Positions 2,834-11,330 of a DNA stretch of 41,932 nucleotides are shown here, in pieces. This DNA is from an uncultured Bacilli bacterium (GTDB lineage Bacteria; Bacillota_I; Bacilli_A; RFN20; CAG-288): the NCBI GenBank assembly GCA_944372245.1, contig CALVYN010000005.1:1-41932 (forward strand), in the 5' to 3' direction. Position 1 is the stretch's first letter; the number at the start of each line of letters is the position of its first letter. Both the position numbers and the translations under genes were made by a program. Below the pieces are notes generated by a model. It saw nothing but the letters and a program-made list of their open reading frames with translations, was not told where the DNA came from and searched no databases.

Positions 2834-2866
2834 AGACACACCTCCTCTCATTTGCCGCGAACCTTA

Positions 2867-2872
2867 ATTATA
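2867..2872 (-). promoter_or_regulatory. Candidate -10 box for uvrA
   Basis: On the minus strand this reads TATAAT, a perfect -10 consensus, 34 nt before the uvrA start codon. No good -35 hexamer sits 16-18 nt further upstream, so the promoter call rests on the -10 box and its position. Confidence 0.45.
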
Positions 2873-3056
2873 AGACCACTATTCCGCCCCATACTAATCG
2901 ATAAGGGGACACTTCCACCCTGGTCTTACCATAGCAGAGACACGTGTCTATCTGTGCAAAACGATTATAGAAATTGAAAAATCTTTTTGTGATTTTGGGA
3001 GTGGACTGGAATTATGTGTAAGTACCTGCACTCAATCACTTTCATTTACTTGTAGG

Positions 3057-4214
3057 GTTGAAGAGATCTAATAAATCACAATACTTCGAGACACTTCGAG
3101 GCGGAGCAGCTAGAGGGCTACGGTTGAAGAGATCTAATAAATCACAATACTTCGAGACTAGACAAAGTCTATATAGAATGATTTCGGAGTTGAAGAGATC
3201 TAATAAATCACAATACTTCGAGACAGCAGTGGTCGCGCGGCGGTAGCCGCTACGGTTGAAGAGATCTAATAAATCACAATACTTCGAGACCTATGAATAT
3301 GGCGGACACTTCTTTTGGTGGTTGAAGAGATCTAATAAATCACAATACTTCGAGACACTACTGGTGGCAGCCCCACCGTCGACTGGGTTGAAGAGATCTA
3401 ATAAATCACAATACTTCGAGACGATAATATTCTAGGAGGGAGAATCGTTCTCTGTTGAAGAGATCTAATAAATCACAATACTTCGAGACCCCTTGCGATG
3501 AAGCCCCTTACTGACGAAGGTTGAAGAGATCTAATAAATCACAATACTTCGAGACTCAAGATTTGGAATGACTGGTTCCGTGACCGTTGAAGAGATCTAA
3601 TAAATCACAATACTTCGAGACTGCGACTAGGGCCCAGATCGAGTTGCACAGTTGAAGAGATCTAATAAATCACAATACTTCGAGACCGCCTTAACGAAAG
3701 AATCGGCAAAGCGCTTAGTTGAAGAGATCTAATAAATCACAATACTTCGAGACCGCTGCGGTGTGAATATCCGCGAGTGGCGGTTGAAGAGATCTAATAA
3801 ATCACAATACTTCGAGACCTCAACGAGCATAGAAAGAGCCTAGACGTGGTTGAAGAGATCTAATAAATCACAATACTTCGAGACCAACTACCTTTTATCA
3901 TGGATGTATTCCTTTGTTGAAGAGATCTAATAAATCACAATACTTCGAGACTGGCTACGTCGCCAAGCGACGGAACTTAATGTTGAAGAGATCTAATAAA
4001 TCACAATACTTCGAGACTCACTTGATATGGAACTCTAACAGCTGGGGGTTGAAGAGATCTAATAAATCACAATACTTCGAGACGTGAACAGTAATCACAC
4101 CAGTAGAGGTATCGTTGAAGAGATCTAATAAATCACAATACTTCGAGACAACGCGTTGACCCGATAACCGGCAAGCCAGTTGAAGAGATCTAATAAATCA
4201 CAATACTTCGAGAC
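3057..4214 (-). CRISPR. Type II-A CRISPR array, 18 repeats and 17 spacers
   Basis: Eighteen copies of a 36-bp repeat, which I read as identical throughout, are separated by 17 spacers of 29-31 bp. On the plus strand the repeat begins GTTGAAGAGA and ends ACTTCGAGAC. Repeat starts are 3057, 3123, 3189, 3255, 3321, 3387, 3454, 3520, 3586, 3651, 3718, 3783, 3849, 3916, 3982, 4048, 4114 and 4179. Three observations show transcription on the minus strand, starting from the csn2 side: the cas genes run that way, the flank at 4215 reads TTTGAG directly before the repeat, and the tracrRNA anti-repeat has plus-strand polarity. The mature crRNA repeat therefore begins GUCUCGAAG. The newest spacer should be 4150-4178. 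The leader-distal repeat (3057-3092) is not degenerate, which is unusual for an old array end. Confidence 0.98.
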
Positions 4215-4302
4215 CTCAAACTGCAAAATTTCATACGTTTTTTGATGCTTTTTGATAGGAAAGTACTGTGAAGGGCAGGAGAAATACGAGGTCTCCTGCC
4301 AA
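4215..4302 (-). promoter_or_regulatory. CRISPR leader
   Basis: This 88-bp AT-rich interval separates the csn2 stop from the first transcribed repeat. Read on the minus strand it ends in TTTGAG immediately before the repeat. That matches the leader-anchoring sequence (ATTTGAG type) used by type II-A Cas1-Cas2 to select the leader-proximal repeat in streptococci. It also contains two adjacent 10-nt direct repeats (4237-4246 and 4247-4256, GYTTTTTGAT on the plus strand). No strong -35/-10 pair was found; TATGAA on the minus strand near 4235 is the best -10 candidate. Confidence 0.75.
4274..4300 (-). terminator. Hairpin between csn2 and the CRISPR leader
   Basis: A perfect 8-bp stem (GGCAGGAG/CTCCTGCC) with an 11-nt loop starts 3 nt after the csn2 stop codon. 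No U-run follows it on the minus strand, so it is either a weak terminator, leaving some cas readthrough into the array, or an mRNA 3'-end stabiliser. The structure is certain; its role is inferred. Confidence 0.5.
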
Positions 4303-4986
4303 TTAAGATTTTAGGATTTCGCAGAGATCTGAATCAATTATGATGATGCGCTCATCCGCTTTTTGACACCTAGGTTCTCGAGCATCAATCACGACGATAT
4401 CGATATCTAAGAGAGCCATCTCTCTATAGAAAATATCAATCTCTTCAGCCGACAGAACATCGTGAAGATTCACCAGAAAGAAAATGTTCTTTCTGAATAA
4501 GATAGACAGAATCATGATTCTATCGATTAGAGAAACTAGATAGTCACCACTGGTTTCATAGTCAGGTTTAATAGATGCGAGCTTCAGTATCGATGCAATA
4601 TCGAATTCCTGCTGATAAGTAATAGGAATGGAATAGTCAGCAATCAGGTTATATACGAATGAGGAGATTGCTGAATTGAGCTTGGCAAGCTCCAGTCTAT
4701 TGCTCTCGGTTGCTCTCTTCTCTATGTCCTTGTAGAGAAGAGTGGCACATTTCTTATCATCGATAGGAATCTCAAAAAGATCTGTCATGAGAAATGCCGT
4801 CTTGGATAGAGAGAAAGGCTCCAAACCATCAGTGCAAATAACAAACTCCTCATCCAACTCGATCTGTGTCTGAATACCGAGGATAACCTCTCGAAAGAAC
4901 TTTTGATTCTCTAGGACGAGGACATTAACTTTCTGTCTATCCAATCGAATAGGATCATCAATCCACTTATGCTTTATCTCTCTCAT
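4303..4986 (-). CDS. csn2: CRISPR-associated protein Csn2 (type II-A)
   Basis: Csn2 forms a tetrameric ring that slides on DNA ends and takes part in spacer acquisition with Cas1, Cas2 and Cas9; its presence defines subtype II-A. The 227-aa length fits the family. The N-terminal part resembles Csn2 proteins (short strands followed by QIELDEEFVICTDGLEPFSLSKTAFLMTDLFEI), with a helical middle region and a C-terminal NIFFLVNLHDVLSAEEIDIFYRE segment typical of the degenerate ATPase-like core. Its start ATG overlaps the cas2 stop as ATGA, so it is translationally coupled. The assignment rests on both sequence and position as the last cas gene before the leader. Confidence 0.9.
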   Translation of the reverse strand: MREIKHKWIDDPIRLDRQKVNVLVLENQKFFREVILGIQTQIELDEEFVICTDGLEPFSLSKTAFLMTDLFEIPIDDKKCATLLYKDIEKRATESNRLELAKLNSAISSFVYNLIADYSIPITYQQEFDIASILKLASIKPDYETSGDYLVSLIDRIMILSILFRKNIFFLVNLHDVLSAEEIDIFYREMALLDIDIVVIDAREPRCQKADERIIIIDSDLCEILKS

Positions 4987-5306
4987 AGTTCGATAAACCT
5001 CTCATCGGAATTGATCACATCAGTCTTTAAATTGCCCACGATAAATTCAATGCTTGAGAACTGCCGTTCGGTGATTGTGAGAGCAGCAACGCTCCCCTCC
5101 TTAGGTTTGTTCTCCCTTATGATTTCAAGAACATTATCAACTGCAGTCTGATTGAGACTCATACGCACGTATACAGATTCCTGGAGCATGAAGAATCCAT
5201 TTCTTTTAAGCATAGTAACGAATCTTCGATACTCGCGTCTCTGGGATGCCTTAATCACTGGTAGGTCGAAGAATATCAGGGTTCTCATATATCGATATAG
5301 ACTCAT
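4983..5306 (-). CDS. cas2: CRISPR-associated protein Cas2
   Basis: Cas2 is the small ferredoxin-fold scaffold that bridges two Cas1 dimers in the spacer integrase. The 107-aa protein has the expected first strand ending in the conserved acidic residue (RTLIFFDLP, Asp14) followed by helix ASQRREYRRFVTMLKRNGF and strand MLQESVYVR, as in type II-A Cas2. The start ATG overlaps the cas1 stop codon (ATGA), and its own stop overlaps the csn2 start the same way. A second Met at residue 7 is possible, but the overlapping start fits the coupled arrangement better. Confidence 0.94.
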   Translation of the reverse strand: MSLYRYMRTLIFFDLPVIKASQRREYRRFVTMLKRNGFFMLQESVYVRMSLNQTAVDNVLEIIRENKPKEGSVAALTITERQFSSIEFIVGNLKTDVINSDERFIEL

Positions 5307-6181
5307 CTTTCAGAAAAATAGATAAATTGGCAATCAGAAGGATTATTTTTATTTAAGGCATAAAATATTGTTTGAACATAGTCATCTATCGCATTGCTCA
5401 GGATAGCTGTTCTCCCATTGATGCCAACAGTATCTCCTAGGACGCCCTTCATGTATTGCTTGTAGTTATCATCATTCAGCTCAAAATCGAGGAATTTAGC
5501 ATCGACAAATGGTCGAAGTGGTTCCACAAGATCACATCCAAAATTAAAGGGGTTTGTTTCTCCGCGATGATGGATTCCAAGCTGAAGCAGATATCCAGAT
5601 GATGAGATGGCTCGATTTATAGCGCTCAAAATGATTGAGTAACCATAATCCAGATAGACATTTCTCTGGTCCATCGAATTTCGACGATTGAAGCCTAAAT
5701 TAAATAGTGCTTCAAAATAAATTTTTGCCCCGAGACCCTCTCGGTTAGTCGCATCATCAGGTTCCACCTGATCCGCATATGAAAGGATAAGATCTGCAAC
5801 ATCATTGACTCTTTTCCTCTGGAGCACCATGGCTTGGCGAGTCAGCTTTGCTTTCACAATAGCCTGCCACACTAATCCTCTCGTCTCACTAGTCCAGGAC
5901 AATTGTTTTTTGAGAGCCTGAAGTGGTGCGTGATATTGATGGTATGGAACCACCTCTCCCTGAGGATTCCACTTAGAGTCACAAAAGATGATTTTTACGC
6001 CGTGATCCATCAACTTTGAGATGGCTGCCGCGGTCATCGAGCATTGGACATTGGCGATTATCAGAGTTGCAATCTCATCTAGGAGAACTCTCTTCTCCTC
6101 TTCTGCACGAACGACCAGATAGTTGAGTTGAACTTCGAGTTTGCATCTCGACTTAATCGTCAGAGTCCGAAACGCTGCCAT
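5303..6181 (-). CDS. cas1: CRISPR-associated integrase Cas1
   Basis: Cas1 is the metal-dependent integrase that inserts new spacers at the leader-repeat junction. The 292-aa protein begins AAFRTLTIKSRCKLEVQLNY, matching the N-terminal strand of type II Cas1. It carries the catalytic set: Glu148 in NREGLGAKIYFEALF, His204/205 in LGIHHRGETNPFNFGCDLVEP, and acidic residues at 217 and 220. The first Met lies inside the cas9 reading frame, giving a 29-nt overlap with the cas9 end. This start is preferred because the conserved N-terminal strand begins two residues later. The 3' end overlaps cas2 by 4 nt. Confidence 0.96.
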   Translation of the reverse strand: MAAFRTLTIKSRCKLEVQLNYLVVRAEEEKRVLLDEIATLIIANVQCSMTAAAISKLMDHGVKIIFCDSKWNPQGEVVPYHQYHAPLQALKKQLSWTSETRGLVWQAIVKAKLTRQAMVLQRKRVNDVADLILSYADQVEPDDATNREGLGAKIYFEALFNLGFNRRNSMDQRNVYLDYGYSIILSAINRAISSSGYLLQLGIHHRGETNPFNFGCDLVEPLRPFVDAKFLDFELNDDNYKQYMKGVLGDTVGINGRTAILSNAIDDYVQTIFYALNKNNPSDCQFIYFSER

Positions 6182-9100
6182 CGTTTAGAAAGACCTTGCC
6201 GTTACCCTGGTCGTCGAGCTCAAAGATTTTGTGTCGATAGAAGCCAGTAGGAGATTCAGTATAGATAGATAGAGGGCCTGAAAGTTTGATACCAAGCAAA
6301 CATATACCTGCTTGTTTCACTAATCCAATTTTTCGGAGGTCAACTCCTGAACTTCTTCCGCAATGTATTAGTTTAAAAAGATTAGTTAAAGTAATAATCT
6401 GATCGCAAATTGGCAAAGATTTGAAAACATCTCGCTTATTCGAAAGTTTATTTTTATTAAATCTGAATAGAGTCGTGTCTTTAAAACGATTTTTCGTGAG
6501 ATAACTCTTGATGTAATCAAAAATTATTAAATTGTTATCAGTCGTAATTTTAAATTTGTCTGCCAACTTAGCATTGATGTGTGAGATAAAAGAATCTACA
6601 AGCTTAGCAATAGATTTTTCATCTTTACTAGCCTTACCAAACTCATTAATTTGATTGTTAATATAGACAATGCTTTGACAATATTTTTGCATCTCATATG
6701 AATAGAATGGCTGATAGCTTAGCTCATAAACAAAAGAGTTAGAGGTTTTAGAAGCAATTCTAATTGGAAGCTTTCCTGAGCCAAGTTCGAATAATGTATT
6801 TATAGAGATTTTATTGATTAAAATTTTTGCATTCTTACATTCAATTTGATTACAGGCATATTGCTTAGCAAATTCAGGATTAGATAAATACTTAGAAGCA
6901 ACAATTCTCTGAATTGGAAGTAGATAGAAGAAATTCGAATCATCATTGCCTTCATACTTTACCAAAGAGAAAAAACTGACACTTGGTTTGGGGTAAAAAC
7001 CATATTTATGAGTATCACTCATCATTTGAAAACGATCATCACTATTCTCTGAAGATTTAAGAGGAAAATAATCTTCGCCTTTAATCATTCTGGGAGAAAG
7101 AGGATTAGATTTTGAAAACGCCCCCTTAGACTGGACAAGCATCTTCGTATACAGGATATCGGTATTTCTCAGTTGTCTCTTTACAAGCTGGATTGTCGAA
7201 TGTGCCATTTCTCCGGGAATCCAGTCAAACCGCGAAGTCGAGAAACGACAGGGAATATTGCCGTTAAAAATCTTATCGACTAGTCTGGTCGTCACCTTTC
7301 TATCGGGGTTATTTTCCAAAATTCGATCTTTATTATTCTGATCATTTGAAACCCACGCCTTAGTGACTTTGTCGATCTTCCAGGTGAGGTGATAGAAAGA
7401 CTTGGAGCACTCGCCGGTAATGATGTTGATGTAGGCGTCATGGGCATGATGGAAATCATTAGTCTCACGGCACTTAGGGATATCGAACTTATCTCTAAAC
7501 TCGTGGGCAAGTGAAGCTCTAGGCATATTCAACTCAGGAATAGCATCTTCGATAGCCTTGCTATCCCAATCGGGATGCTGCTTCTGAATGCGATTGAAGT
7601 AGTCGGTGTGCAGAACATCCCAAAGCAGCTTGATGGATTGAGAGGTGGAAACGATCTGCCTGTTGATAAAGGTGGCTTTCTCCTCGTCAGTCAAAGGTCT
7701 AGTGACAGGTCTCATCAGGCGGTCGTACTTGCTGTCGCTGATGAGTTTGCTCTGATGTAAGAACTCGATAACCCTGCGGGCATCAGGATTGTCCTGAATG
7801 ATATTAGTGGGGATAGGATAGATATCCTTCTTTTTATCCCTGTTAACACTCTGAGATACGAGAACAAGATTGTCAAGGCTATCATCCTTCTTCACAGACC
7901 TAGGAATGATATGGTCGATATCGTAGAGATTCTCCTTGTCGAGGTCATCAAAATCGATAGGCTTCCCAGTGTAGACATCGTATCCAAGCTGGTTGAAATA
8001 GAGGAAATATCTCTTGGCTTTCAAGGAGATATCCGTTTTGCTAAGTTTCTTCTGGAATTTGCTGATGCGAGTGGCAAAAGTCGAATATTTTTCGATGGCC
8101 ACGCGTTGCGCATACTTGTATTGATTCTCAAGAACCTTCTTGCGATTGAGGTCATTTCCATTGACCTTCTGTGCTTTCGGAATCGAAGGGTCCTGACTCC
8201 TGGGGGATTCCATGAAAATCGCATCGACCGGACGCCCGATGATGTGCTCAACTTCACGCACGATCTTCATCGCCTGGATGATGGCGCGCTTGGTCATCGG
8301 TGAGCCGTGAAGGTTGAGCGTGTAGTCGACATAGTTCGTGTATTTATCACTCGTCTTCTCGTTGATTTCCTTAATCTGATCCAAGAAGTGATAGTCCTCG
8401 TTATAGAGGATCTGCATGAAGTTTTCGGAGTAGTCTGCACCGTTCTTCTTGGTGACGCGACGCATGAGTTCAATGATGCTGGGGCCGGTGTAGAAGATCA
8501 CGTCATCATCGTTAACCACACCCGCTTTGAGCTCGGTGAGAAGCTGCTCAGAGAGGCTTCCCCAGCCCTTATAGCGGAGCTTTAAGATCTTCTCGACCTG
8601 TCCACGGCTCAGGCTGGGCATGATCTTCTTGACCTGCTTGAGCAGAATACTCCTATCCTCGAACAGGGTGATGGCCTTAATGATCTGCTCGGCTTTCTCC
8701 ACATCAAAGGCAGAGCCCAAGATATTCTTGAGGTCGACATAAGAGCGCATATTAGCCTGCAGATAGTCGTTGGTCAGAAGCTTGTCGTCATCTGAGGTGG
8801 ATCCAGCGGTGTAGAGTTTGAAGTCACTGCGTCCGAGATGCTTTTTGACAACCTCACTGATATCAGTCTTAGAGACTTTGCCCTTTGTCTTGTAGAGATC
8901 AAGGACATCATCCTTGGTCGCTTGATCAAGGTAGCAAAGGCTATTGCCGCTCTTGATGACGATCTTGTTAATCTCGTTGAGGACACAGTACTCAGAGTAG
9001 AGTATCGAGAAGCGAGGGAGGGTATTGGCAGAGAGGATATAGGAGCACTTGTTCACCATCCTCTGGATGAACTCCTCGGCTGCCTGATCCTCATTCACAA

Positions 9101-10781
9101 ACTTCTGCCAGTTCCAGGCATGGATGTCTCCAGGCTTTCTGTTCTTCCAAGCATCAGTCTTCTTAGCCCAGGAATTCGGGTTGTTAGCATTGTTATCGAG
9201 AGGGCCGATATAGTAGGGAATCTTGAACTTGAAGATGCTCAGAATCTTTTCAGAGACGGAGAGGCCATCCGCATCTTTAGCCTTCAAGAAGGGATAGTAC
9301 TGCTCCATCCTCGCGAGAATGGCTCCCAACTCCTTCTGATGGAGCTGCCTCTTGATGATTCCATTCTCGCCGCTGTTCTGCCGCAGCAGATAATCATTCG
9401 CTTCAATCTGAGCGAGGATTTTCTTCTTCTCTTCGATCTCTTTCCTCTCAAAGTCAGAAGTGGGAGAAGCCTTATCCAGATTCTCCTTCTTATCCATATC
9501 GAGCGTCTTCTTCAAAAAGTCATAAAACTCATCACACTTAACATGACCACCCTTACCAGCCGTATTGTTGGCAAAATCACGTCCCTTGCGGCCCTGGACC
9601 AGAGTACTTCCAACATAGTGAGAGTAGTTGGCAGGAGAGCCTTTACCATCGCTGGCCTCTCTGAAGATTGCGTTGTACTTCTGAGGATAGTAGGTCTTCA
9701 CAAACCTCTTCAGCTCTCTGAGCTGCTGGTGGTGCTTCTCATACCTTTCAACCATAGCATCGGAGATCGTGCTGTTATCTCCGAGAATCCTGGTCAATTT
9801 GAGAGCGTCGTTGAATCTCTTGCAGCAGGTCAGGATGTTGGACACATCTTCGGGATAGGAATCTAGTTTCGGCTCGATCTTCTCATCCCAATCATCCAAG
9901 CTAAAGCTGCCCAGCTGCTCCACATCCTCGATCGAGCCAGGGAAAAGGTCAGAGAACTTCGTCTTGCCGCCCGAGATGAGGGCGAGGATCTTCCCCTCCA
10001 TATTGGTCAGCGTTCGGGTATCAAAGATGCCAAGCAAGGCTTCCTTGGTATTCATGCTGCCTTCAATCTTAGGAAGGATCTCCTCCTTGATCTTCTCAGC
10101 CTGTTCGTAGCTGATTTCAAAGCCGCAGGGAACAATATTCTCCTCCGTCTTTTCAGAGAACAGGAGACCATCCTGACTGAGATTCACATAGGAAGCGTCG
10201 ATCTGATTAAAGAGGTCTTTGATCTCATCAGCATTGACGTTGTTTCCCAAGTTATCTGAGGGGTCCAGGAAGTTTCCGCGATACTTGATAATGTGGTGAA
10301 TAGCGAGATAGACCAGCCTGATATCGGGCTTCACAGGGCCGGTCCACTCCATGAGGGCTTTGCGGAGATGAAAGATCGTCGGATATTTCTTGAAGAAATC
10401 TCTGTCTTTGTAGTCAGGGTCATCAAAGAGGATACTCTTCTTAACCCTCACTCGATTGGCTTCATCCTTCCAATCAAAGGAGAAGGAGTAGTCGAGCCGG
10501 TGGAAGAAGTTGGGGTCGACCTTCTGGATCTCGTCGGCAAAGAGCTGACGCAGCTCGAAGATGCGAGCGCGCCTGCGCTCGAGGCGCTTCCGCTGCGTGC
10601 GGAACATGCGCCTATCATTGGCCGTCTTAGCCTCATCGAAGAGACGGATTCCCCACAGGTGCTGATTTCTCTTTCTCAGCAGCTTGAAGTTTCCATCGGT
10701 GACAGCCCATCCCACACTATTAGTGCCCAGGTCAAGACCCAGGTAAACCATATTGGTCTTCTTGTCCTTGTTTTCTCCCAT
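6153..10781 (-). CDS. cas9: Type II-A Cas9 RNA-guided endonuclease, large and compositionally mosaic
   Basis: Cas9 cuts both strands of DNA matched by crRNA:tracrRNA. Its 1542 aa carry all nuclease motifs: RuvC-I YLGLDLGTNSVGW (Asp17), an Arg-rich bridge helix (RTQRKRLERRRARIFELR), RuvC-II IFMESPRS (Glu858), HNH YDIDHIIPRS (His957) with VSQSVNRDKK, and RuvC-III FHHAHDAYIN (Asp1115). S. pyogenes Cas9 has these at 10, 762, 840 and 986, so about 90 extra residues lie in the REC lobe, with smaller gains around HNH and in the C-terminal domain. ESPTGFYRHKIFEL near the end matches the QSITGLYETRIDLS region of SpCas9. The start was set at MGENKDKK, preceded by AAAAGGGG 9 nt upstream; a Met nine codons earlier has no ribosome site. 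The last 1.1 kb is much more AT-rich than the rest. PAM is unknown. Confidence 0.97.
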   Translation of the reverse strand: MGENKDKKTNMVYLGLDLGTNSVGWAVTDGNFKLLRKRNQHLWGIRLFDEAKTANDRRMFRTQRKRLERRRARIFELRQLFADEIQKVDPNFFHRLDYSFSFDWKDEANRVRVKKSILFDDPDYKDRDFFKKYPTIFHLRKALMEWTGPVKPDIRLVYLAIHHIIKYRGNFLDPSDNLGNNVNADEIKDLFNQIDASYVNLSQDGLLFSEKTEENIVPCGFEISYEQAEKIKEEILPKIEGSMNTKEALLGIFDTRTLTNMEGKILALISGGKTKFSDLFPGSIEDVEQLGSFSLDDWDEKIEPKLDSYPEDVSNILTCCKRFNDALKLTRILGDNSTISDAMVERYEKHHQQLRELKRFVKTYYPQKYNAIFREASDGKGSPANYSHYVGSTLVQGRKGRDFANNTAGKGGHVKCDEFYDFLKKTLDMDKKENLDKASPTSDFERKEIEEKKKILAQIEANDYLLRQNSGENGIIKRQLHQKELGAILARMEQYYPFLKAKDADGLSVSEKILSIFKFKIPYYIGPLDNNANNPNSWAKKTDAWKNRKPGDIHAWNWQKFVNEDQAAEEFIQRMVNKCSYILSANTLPRFSILYSEYCVLNEINKIVIKSGNSLCYLDQATKDDVLDLYKTKGKVSKTDISEVVKKHLGRSDFKLYTAGSTSDDDKLLTNDYLQANMRSYVDLKNILGSAFDVEKAEQIIKAITLFEDRSILLKQVKKIMPSLSRGQVEKILKLRYKGWGSLSEQLLTELKAGVVNDDDVIFYTGPSIIELMRRVTKKNGADYSENFMQILYNEDYHFLDQIKEINEKTSDKYTNYVDYTLNLHGSPMTKRAIIQAMKIVREVEHIIGRPVDAIFMESPRSQDPSIPKAQKVNGNDLNRKKVLENQYKYAQRVAIEKYSTFATRISKFQKKLSKTDISLKAKRYFLYFNQLGYDVYTGKPIDFDDLDKENLYDIDHIIPRSVKKDDSLDNLVLVSQSVNRDKKKDIYPIPTNIIQDNPDARRVIEFLHQSKLISDSKYDRLMRPVTRPLTDEEKATFINRQIVSTSQSIKLLWDVLHTDYFNRIQKQHPDWDSKAIEDAIPELNMPRASLAHEFRDKFDIPKCRETNDFHHAHDAYINIITGECSKSFYHLTWKIDKVTKAWVSNDQNNKDRILENNPDRKVTTRLVDKIFNGNIPCRFSTSRFDWIPGEMAHSTIQLVKRQLRNTDILYTKMLVQSKGAFSKSNPLSPRMIKGEDYFPLKSSENSDDRFQMMSDTHKYGFYPKPSVSFFSLVKYEGNDDSNFFYLLPIQRIVASKYLSNPEFAKQYACNQIECKNAKILINKISINTLFELGSGKLPIRIASKTSNSFVYELSYQPFYSYEMQKYCQSIVYINNQINEFGKASKDEKSIAKLVDSFISHINAKLADKFKITTDNNLIIFDYIKSYLTKNRFKDTTLFRFNKNKLSNKRDVFKSLPICDQIITLTNLFKLIHCGRSSGVDLRKIGLVKQAGICLLGIKLSGPLSIYTESPTGFYRHKIFELDDQGNGKVFLNDGSVSDSDD

Positions 10782-10794
10782 GCTGTGAAACCCC

Positions 10795-10822
10795 TTTTCA
10801 ATCAGCATTTAAAGGATATACT
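10795..10822 (+). promoter_or_regulatory. Predicted tracrRNA promoter, divergent from cas9
   Basis: A -10 box TATACT (10817-10822) follows a -35-like TTTTCA (10795-10800, 4 of 6 consensus) after a 16-nt spacer. This places the start of transcription near 10829, about 15 nt before the anti-repeat. The -35 overlaps the cas9 leader and ribosome-site region, so tracrRNA and cas9 transcription may interfere with each other. Confidence 0.6.
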
Positions 10823-10828
10823 AATAGC

Positions 10829-10919
10829 GCAGCCAATAACTGCAAATCACAATACGAGTCGAGATAAAAATTTATTCTAATCGCCCTTGTGGCAGGCCCG
10901 CGTCGGCGGACCATTTTTT
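10829..10919 (+). ncRNA. tracrRNA of the type II-A system
   Basis: An anti-repeat starts at 10844: AAATCACAATAC, then GAG, then TCGAGAT (10859-10865). It is complementary to the minus-strand repeat. The lower stem pairs crRNA GUCUCGA with tracrRNA UCGAGAU, including a G·U first pair as in S. pyogenes. The bulge is 1 nt (A) on the crRNA and 3 nt (GAG) on the tracrRNA, and the upper stem is 12 bp. An AU-rich linker, a short GCC/GGC stem-loop (10882-10893) and a GC-rich hairpin (10894-10911, one mismatch) ending in ATTTTTT follow; the last is a rho-independent terminator. Start and end are predicted from the promoter and the T-run. The gene is divergent from cas9, as in S. pyogenes. Confidence 0.88.
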
Positions 10920-11211
10920 ATTTATAAAATTTCAAAGTTTAGATAAATTTAAGATAGAAAAGACTGCTTATTTACAATCAAAATCCATGATTTCCAACTT
11001 ACATATTTATATATAGATATTTCTTTTCTATTTCTTGTGGTCAACCTGCATGGGCTATGAAATTTACCATATCTCCGCCAAACTCATTGTGTCATTTTTG
11101 ATACGTTAAAACACAGTTCCTTGACCTTGTTCTAATGCCAAAACAACTGATTGCTTTTGTGCGAGTCATTGAGAACGTGCTATTAGTTAGACCGATATTG
11201 TCGTCTTCAAA
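10920..11211. other. AT-rich intergenic stretch with no recognised gene
   Basis: About 290 bp between the tracrRNA terminator and the next minus-strand terminator. It is strongly AT-rich, has stops in all frames at short intervals, and shows no RNA gene or convincing promoter. It marks the right edge of the CRISPR-Cas island. Confidence 0.6.
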
Positions 11212-11243
11212 TATAAAAACGGCAACCTTTTAAGGGTTGCCGT
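11212..11243 (-). terminator. Rho-independent terminator of the endonuclease/PopT-like/phosphatase cluster
   Basis: On the minus strand ACGGCAACC and GGTTGCCGT form a perfect 9-bp stem around a 7-nt loop, followed by TTTTATAT. It lies 88 nt after the stop of the phosphatase-superfamily gene. Confidence 0.88.
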
Positions 11244-11330
11244 CGTATCTTGATGCAGGAAATTTTCGCACTTCATTGCGGATTTATCATCTAGAACAAC
11301 GGAGTTCTGTGAAGCCTTCAAAGATTATTT

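What the first reader, a model, noticed from the sequence alone, without database searches (positions are those of the whole stretch)
10829..10919. tracrRNA found divergent from cas9, with S. pyogenes-like duplex geometry
The plus strand carries AAATCACAATAC-GAG-TCGAGAT, matching the repeat except at a 3-nt insert. With minus-strand crRNA this gives a 7-bp lower stem starting with a G·U pair, a 1/3-nt bulge and a 12-bp upper stem. The 3' part lacks the usual GGCUAGUCC-like nexus: an AU-rich linker leads to a tiny GCC/GGC loop and the terminator hairpin. The scaffold may be of a less common type and so may not be interchangeable with known Cas9s.
Basis: partly seen in the sequence, partly recalled or inferred. 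Interest (0 to 1): 0.78.

Follow-up and report, generated by a model that had tools for sequence, protein, structure and literature searches.

The report
Ordinary tracrRNA of a II-A CRISPR
This is the small RNA that a normal bacterial Cas9 defence system needs to use its guides; its fold is one already common among related gut-bacterial Cas9 systems, and the only distinctive trait is a base-swapped stem whose two halves, 7 kb apart, have changed together.

Summary
Plus strand 10844-10865 is a full-length pairing partner for the minus-strand crRNA repeat. It is the only such site in the 1.12 Mb genome, and chance gives none in 100 shuffles. A weak promoter-like site precedes it and a terminator hairpin follows. 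The locus is a complete type II-A system (cas9-cas1-cas2-csn2 and 18 identical repeats), and a leader-anchor motif confirms the crRNA strand.

The claim that the scaffold is of a less common type without a nexus is not supported. In 85 tracrRNAs parsed beside related Cas9s, the 'AU-rich linker' is the nexus: a 3-bp stem with a 4-nt loop, 2 nt after the lower stem, with strong pair covariation. The window's form, AAA-UUUA-UUC, is the commonest one (22 of 85). Divergent transcription is the rule (77 of 85). A sequence profile built without the window finds it once in the genome (E = 2.1e-6).

The lower stem is distinctive: three pairs changed on both sides (GUUUGA:UCAAAU to GUCUCG:CGAGAU), unique among 58 systems, although Lacticaseibacillus repeats also begin GTCTC. 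Best reading: a working, ordinary tracrRNA, a new member of a known kind. In passing, the locus is a low-GC island, and one spacer matches gokushovirus VP1 with NNTA-like flanks.

The parts
10795..10822 (+). predicted sigma-70-like promoter of the tracrRNA (TTTTCA-16-TATACT); start expected near 10829
   Evidence: consensus scan, 9 of 12 matches, weak; overlaps the likely cas9 ribosome-binding site
10829..10919 (+). tracrRNA gene (predicted transcript, about 90 nt)
   Evidence: anti-repeat, nexus, hairpin and terminator; profile R1 built from 44 relatives without the window hits 10845-10902 as the only place in the genome, E 2.1e-6
10844..10855 (+). anti-repeat, upper stem (12 bp with crRNA GUAUUGUGAUUU)
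10856..10859 (+). bulge GAGU, opposite crRNA AA (GAG opposite A if the extra A-U pair forms)
   Evidence: GAGU or AAGU in 56 of 58 systems with a repeat
10860..10865 (+). anti-repeat, lower stem CGAGAU (pairs with crRNA GUCUCG, first pair G-U)
   Evidence: three compensated pair changes against the relatives' UCAAAU:GUUUGA
10868..10877 (+). nexus: AAA-UUUA-UUC, 2 nt (AA) after the lower stem
   Evidence: identical 12-mer AAAAATTTATTC in 21 relatives; nexus pairs covary across the set
10883..10893 (+). hairpin 1: GCC-CUUGU-GGC
   Evidence: minimum-energy fold; CGNC..GNC hairpins at the same place in many relatives
10895..10919 (+). intrinsic terminator hairpin GGCCCGC-GUCG-GCGGACC plus T6
   Evidence: fold -10.4 kcal/mol, z -2.0
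6153..10808 (-). cas9 (1551 aa from the first ATG; the ATG at 10781 with an AAAAGGGG ribosome-binding site is the likelier start)
   Evidence: TIGR01865 E 2e-212; GLDLGTNS, DHI and HHAHDA motifs present; best solved relative 9jwk
5303..6181 (-). cas1, type II
   Evidence: TIGR03639
4983..5306 (-). cas2
   Evidence: TIGR01573
4303..4986 (-). csn2, which marks subtype II-A
   Evidence: TIGR01866 E 3.5e-43
3057..4214 (-). CRISPR array: 18 identical 36-nt repeats, 17 spacers of 29-31 nt, crRNA strand minus
4215..4302 (-). leader; leader-anchor GTTTGAG abuts the first repeat (4215-4221, read on minus)
   Evidence: TTTGAG at the same junction in most relatives with arrays

Best explanation
It is the tracrRNA of an intact type II-A CRISPR-Cas9 system. 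It is transcribed away from cas9 and pairs with the repeat part of the pre-crRNA. By established type II-A biology, RNase III would cut the duplex and Cas9 would hold it through the bulged lower stem, the nexus and the 3' hairpins. The scaffold is of the nexus class common among related Bacillota Cas9s. Its lower stem has been rewritten by compensated changes in repeat and tracrRNA together. Shown here: the sequence, the pairing, uniqueness in the genome, the homologous position and motifs, covariation of nexus pairs in the family, and the complete cas operon. Inferred: transcription, processing and Cas9 binding.
For: Single anti-repeat in the whole genome. csn2, cas1, cas2, cas9 and 18 identical repeats. 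crRNA strand fixed by the TTTGAG leader anchor, so the tracrRNA must be on plus. Same place and strand in 77 of 85 related systems. A sequence profile built without the window finds it, E 2.1e-6, the only hit in the genome. Nexus and hairpin pairs covary in relatives: 49 both-side-changed cells against 11 in shuffles, score 0.408 against 0.155. Three compensated lower-stem pairs between the array and a site 7 kb away. FrCas9, whose structure 9jwk is the best solved match, has a divergent tracrRNA upstream of cas9 confirmed by small-RNA sequencing (PMC8931148).
Against: No RNA data. The promoter is a weak consensus match. The window's own nexus does not fold alone (two A-U pairs plus an A-C mismatch), so its stem rests on relatives. 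The 3' part alone folds no better than shuffles (z -0.6). The exact AUUUAUUC nexus string is rare in the Bacilli genomes sampled (2 of 392), although the window Cas9 groups with Bacilli.
Confidence: 0.94

Rival explanations
1. The scaffold is a rare, nexus-less class with its own way of being held by Cas9.
For: No GGCUAGUCC motif; the AU stretch is unpaired in the minimum-energy fold; the window Cas9 has a long branch (0.87).
Against: The identical 12-mer occurs at the same offset in 21 other systems; GGA-UUUA-UCC, CGA-UUUA-UCG, CAA-UUUA-UUG and GCA-GAAA-UGC sit at the same place and covary.
Confidence: 0.04
2. The site is a decayed or chance repeat-like sequence and not a working tracrRNA.
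For: No transcript data; weak promoter match.
Against: Zero chance matches in shuffles, compensated changes with the array, terminator, profile hit, intact cas genes and identical repeats.
Confidence: 0.02

Closest known systems
FrCas9 system of Faecalibaculum rodentium (type II-A; PDB 9jwk; PMC8931148)
   Same: Best-scoring solved Cas9 (445 bits; identity of 9jwk from PMC13052146); cas9, cas1, cas2, csn2 and array; tracrRNA upstream of cas9, transcribed opposite to the cas genes.
   Different: Its tracrRNA letters could not be read here (they are in supplements), so the nexus was not compared. The window Cas9 is longer (1551 against 1372 aa in the PDB chain).
tracrRNAs beside the retrieved Cas9 relatives, mostly from Clostridia (named hosts include Anaerococcus tetradius L110 and Allisonella histaminiformans L086; also MAGs L111, L115, L124)
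   Same: GAGU/AAGU bulge; identical AAAAATTTATTC nexus; L111, L115 and L124 share the 18-mer AAAAATTTATTCTAATCG; L124 and L148 likewise lack the CACAGUGUGUG hairpin.
   Different: Lower stem UCAAAU:GUUUGA there, CGAGAU:GUCUCG here; many have an extra CACAGUGUGUG hairpin before the terminator.
S. pyogenes tracrRNA and SpCas9 (from general knowledge)
   Same: 6-bp lower stem, 2/4 bulge with AAGU-type tracr side, AA linker then nexus, terminator hairpin, tracrRNA divergent from the cas operon.
   Different: Nexus letters differ (GGCUAGUCC against AAAUUUAUUC); SpCas9 scores lower than FrCas9 against this Cas9 (about 350 bits).
Lacticaseibacillus casei group repeats (GTCTCAGGTAGATG..., PMC7156538)
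   Same: The repeat also begins GTCTC, so a C at position 3 is known elsewhere.
   Different: The rest of the repeat differs; no relationship was tested.

Membership tests
Type II-A CRISPR-Cas | cas9 with RuvC and HNH domains | tested here: met
   TIGR01865 and Pfam HNH_4, RuvC, REC and PI domains; catalytic motifs present
Type II-A CRISPR-Cas | csn2 with cas1 and cas2 | tested here: met
   TIGR01866, TIGR03639, TIGR01573
Type II-A CRISPR-Cas | leader-anchor TTTGAG next to the first repeat | tested here: met
   GTTTGAG at 4215-4221 on minus
tracrRNA | anti-repeat outside the array that pairs with the crRNA repeat | tested here: met
tracrRNA | nexus plus terminal hairpin or terminator | tested here: met
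   nexus by homology and family covariation; terminator by fold
tracrRNA | expressed and co-processed with crRNA by RNase III | not testable with these tools
   needs RNA sequencing
common nexus class (N3-UUUA-N3 two nt after the lower stem) | AA linker, 3-nt stem, 4-nt loop, 3-nt stem | tested here: met
   AA-AAA-UUUA-UUC, the commonest of 85; the outer A-C mismatch is shared by many members
SpCas9-type scaffold | GGCUAGUCC-type nexus letters | tested here: not met
   direct reading of 10866-10893
FrCas9-type scaffold | same tracrRNA nexus as FrCas9 | not tested
   FrCas9 tracrRNA sequence not available in the texts held

The most novel reading that the evidence does not exclude
The rewritten lower stem (GUCUCG:CGAGAU), together with a divergent 1551-aa Cas9, makes this dual RNA orthogonal to the common GUUUGA:UCAAAU guides although it keeps the same nexus: a natural example of stem-letter recoding. 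Its PAM may be NNTA-like.
Probability: 0.15. Interest if true: 0.42.

Novelty: new member of a known kind. Interest (0 to 1): 0.24.

Why it matters
It completes the description of a usable Cas9 system (guide scaffold, strand, termini) from an uncultured bacterium and corrects the idea that it lacks a nexus. The compensated lower stem is a natural test of whether Cas9 reads the letters of that stem or only its shape.

Tried and rejected
Rfam at gathering thresholds: no tracrRNA hit, only a tRNA. Single-protein scans of genome and viral contigs found no close Cas9; the alignment scan did. RNAalifold found no consensus pair on the tracrRNA alignment, so profile R1 is sequence-only; pairs were counted on a structure given by hand instead (a first attempt had the wrong length). 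Looking up the nexus letters in papers gave nothing. Five exact spacer searches in viral contigs gave nothing. Another array with this repeat in the order: none, only one partial single-site match. A tracrRNA on the minus strand was rejected because the anti-repeat would then have the same sense as the crRNA.

Full report
The locus. The window carries a complete type II-A system on the minus strand: cas9 (6153-10808), cas1, cas2 and csn2, followed by an array of 18 identical 36-nt repeats at 3057-4214. In crRNA sense the repeat is GTCTCGAAGTATTGTGATTTATTAGATCTCTTCAAC. The leader is on the csn2 side: GTTTGAG abuts the first repeat there, as TTTGAG does in most relatives with arrays. This fixes the crRNA strand as minus and hence the tracrRNA strand as plus.

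The observation. 10844-10865 (+) reads AAATCACAATAC-GAG-TCGAGAT and pairs with the crRNA repeat over 12 + 7 bp with a 1/3 bulge. In 100 shuffles of the window no such match arises, and the 1.12 Mb genome holds only this one apart from the array. The genome is about 90% complete, so a better anti-repeat in the missing tenth cannot be wholly excluded. A promoter-like TTTTCA-16-TATACT lies upstream (weak) and a hairpin with T6 downstream.

Comparison. Cas9 relatives were taken from the same order and class and from titled genome records. Beside their cas9 genes, 85 tracrRNAs (window included) could be parsed. This set is a sample of the nearest Cas9s, not a census. 77 of 85 are divergent from cas9, as in FrCas9 (PMC8931148). 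The bulge GAGU/AAGU is present in 56 of 58 systems with a known repeat. In that frame the lower stem is 6 bp and the bulge 2/4, the S. pyogenes arrangement (general knowledge); the window's extra A-U pair only narrows it.

The nexus. Two nucleotides (AA) after the lower stem, relatives carry three bases, a four-base loop (mostly UUUA) and three bases that pair back: GGA-UUUA-UCC, CGA-UUUA-UCG, CAA-UUUA-UUG, GAA-UUUA-UUC and, in most of the window's own family, GCA-GAAA-UGC. Both-side changes are far above shuffles and above slid pairings (49 cells against 11; covariation score 0.408 against 0.155; the structure counted includes both the nexus and the CACAGUGUGUG hairpin). The two inner nexus pairs alone are paired in 133 of 170 cells against a shuffle mean of 99 and maximum of 113. 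The shuffles do not keep relatedness, so the size of the excess is only a guide. The window's AAA-UUUA-UUC is the commonest form, 22 of 85 including itself, with the same outer A-C mismatch as many others. It does not fold alone in energy terms, which is why it looked like a linker. So the nexus is not missing and the class is not rare among related Cas9s. As an exact string it is rare in the Bacilli genomes sampled (2 of 392), and the window Cas9 lies in a Bacilli clade on a long branch, so the form is either retained or regained there. A sequence profile of 44 relatives, built without the window, finds 10845-10902 as the only hit in the genome, E = 2.1e-6.

The distinctive part. Among 58 systems with both repeat and tracrRNA, the window alone has GUCUCG:CGAGAU in place of GUUUGA:UCAAAU and close variants. 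Pairs 3, 5 and 6 changed on both sides, and all still pair. All 18 repeats and the tracrRNA 7 kb away agree, which is strong evidence that the pairing is in use. No other array in the 279 genomes of the order that were searched has this repeat start. Lacticaseibacillus repeats also begin GTCTC (PMC7156538), so the start itself is not new.

Side results. The CRISPR locus has 0.41-0.45 GC in its genes and array against 0.57-0.62 in the flanks, which suggests acquisition from elsewhere. One spacer (3556-3585) matches the VP1 gene of gokushoviruses at 28 of 30 bases in two different records, each with TA at positions 3-4 of the 3' flank (AGTA, AATA). FrCas9's PAM is NNTA (PMC8931148). But the flank encodes a tyrosine shared by both viruses, so the two cases are not independent, and in one record the two PAM-side bases mismatch. 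It is a lead only.

Verdict. A real, probably working tracrRNA of an ordinary type II-A system, with a common nexus class and an unusual, compensated lower stem. Transcription, processing and use by Cas9 are inferred, not shown.

Noticed in passing
2852-11330: The CRISPR-Cas locus has 0.35-0.45 GC while neighbouring genes have 0.57-0.62: a low-GC island, probably acquired horizontally.
   Followed up: partly
3556-3585: Spacer 10 matches the VP1 capsid gene of Microviridae (gokushoviruses; MG945410, KT264805) at 28 of 30 bases; 3' flanks AGTA and AATA fit an NNTA PAM.
   Followed up: partly
10781-10808: cas9 probably starts at the ATG at 10781 (AAAAGGGG 9 nt upstream) and not at 10808; the tracrRNA promoter overlaps this ribosome-binding site.
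   Followed up: partly
6153-10808: Cas9 is unusually long (1551 aa against a median of 1362 among 110 relatives), with scattered inserts totalling about 147 aa, including 439-451, 1067-1075 and 1083-1092.
   Followed up: partly
L036, L037, L038, L045: Members of the window's own family carry a different nexus, GCA-GAAA-UGC, at the same position.
   Followed up: partly
L050, L052, L053, L055, L057, L059, L061: A second group in the same order has the tracrRNA on the cas9 strand, with a different 3' part that includes GACCA..TGGGTC-like hairpins.
   Followed up: no
L056: cas9 in this relative (G031) is interrupted by in-frame stops while array and tracrRNA remain.
   Followed up: no
L122: A record titled Methanomassiliicoccales archaeon carries a typical Clostridia-like II-A Cas9; possibly a misbinned bacterial contig.
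   Followed up: no
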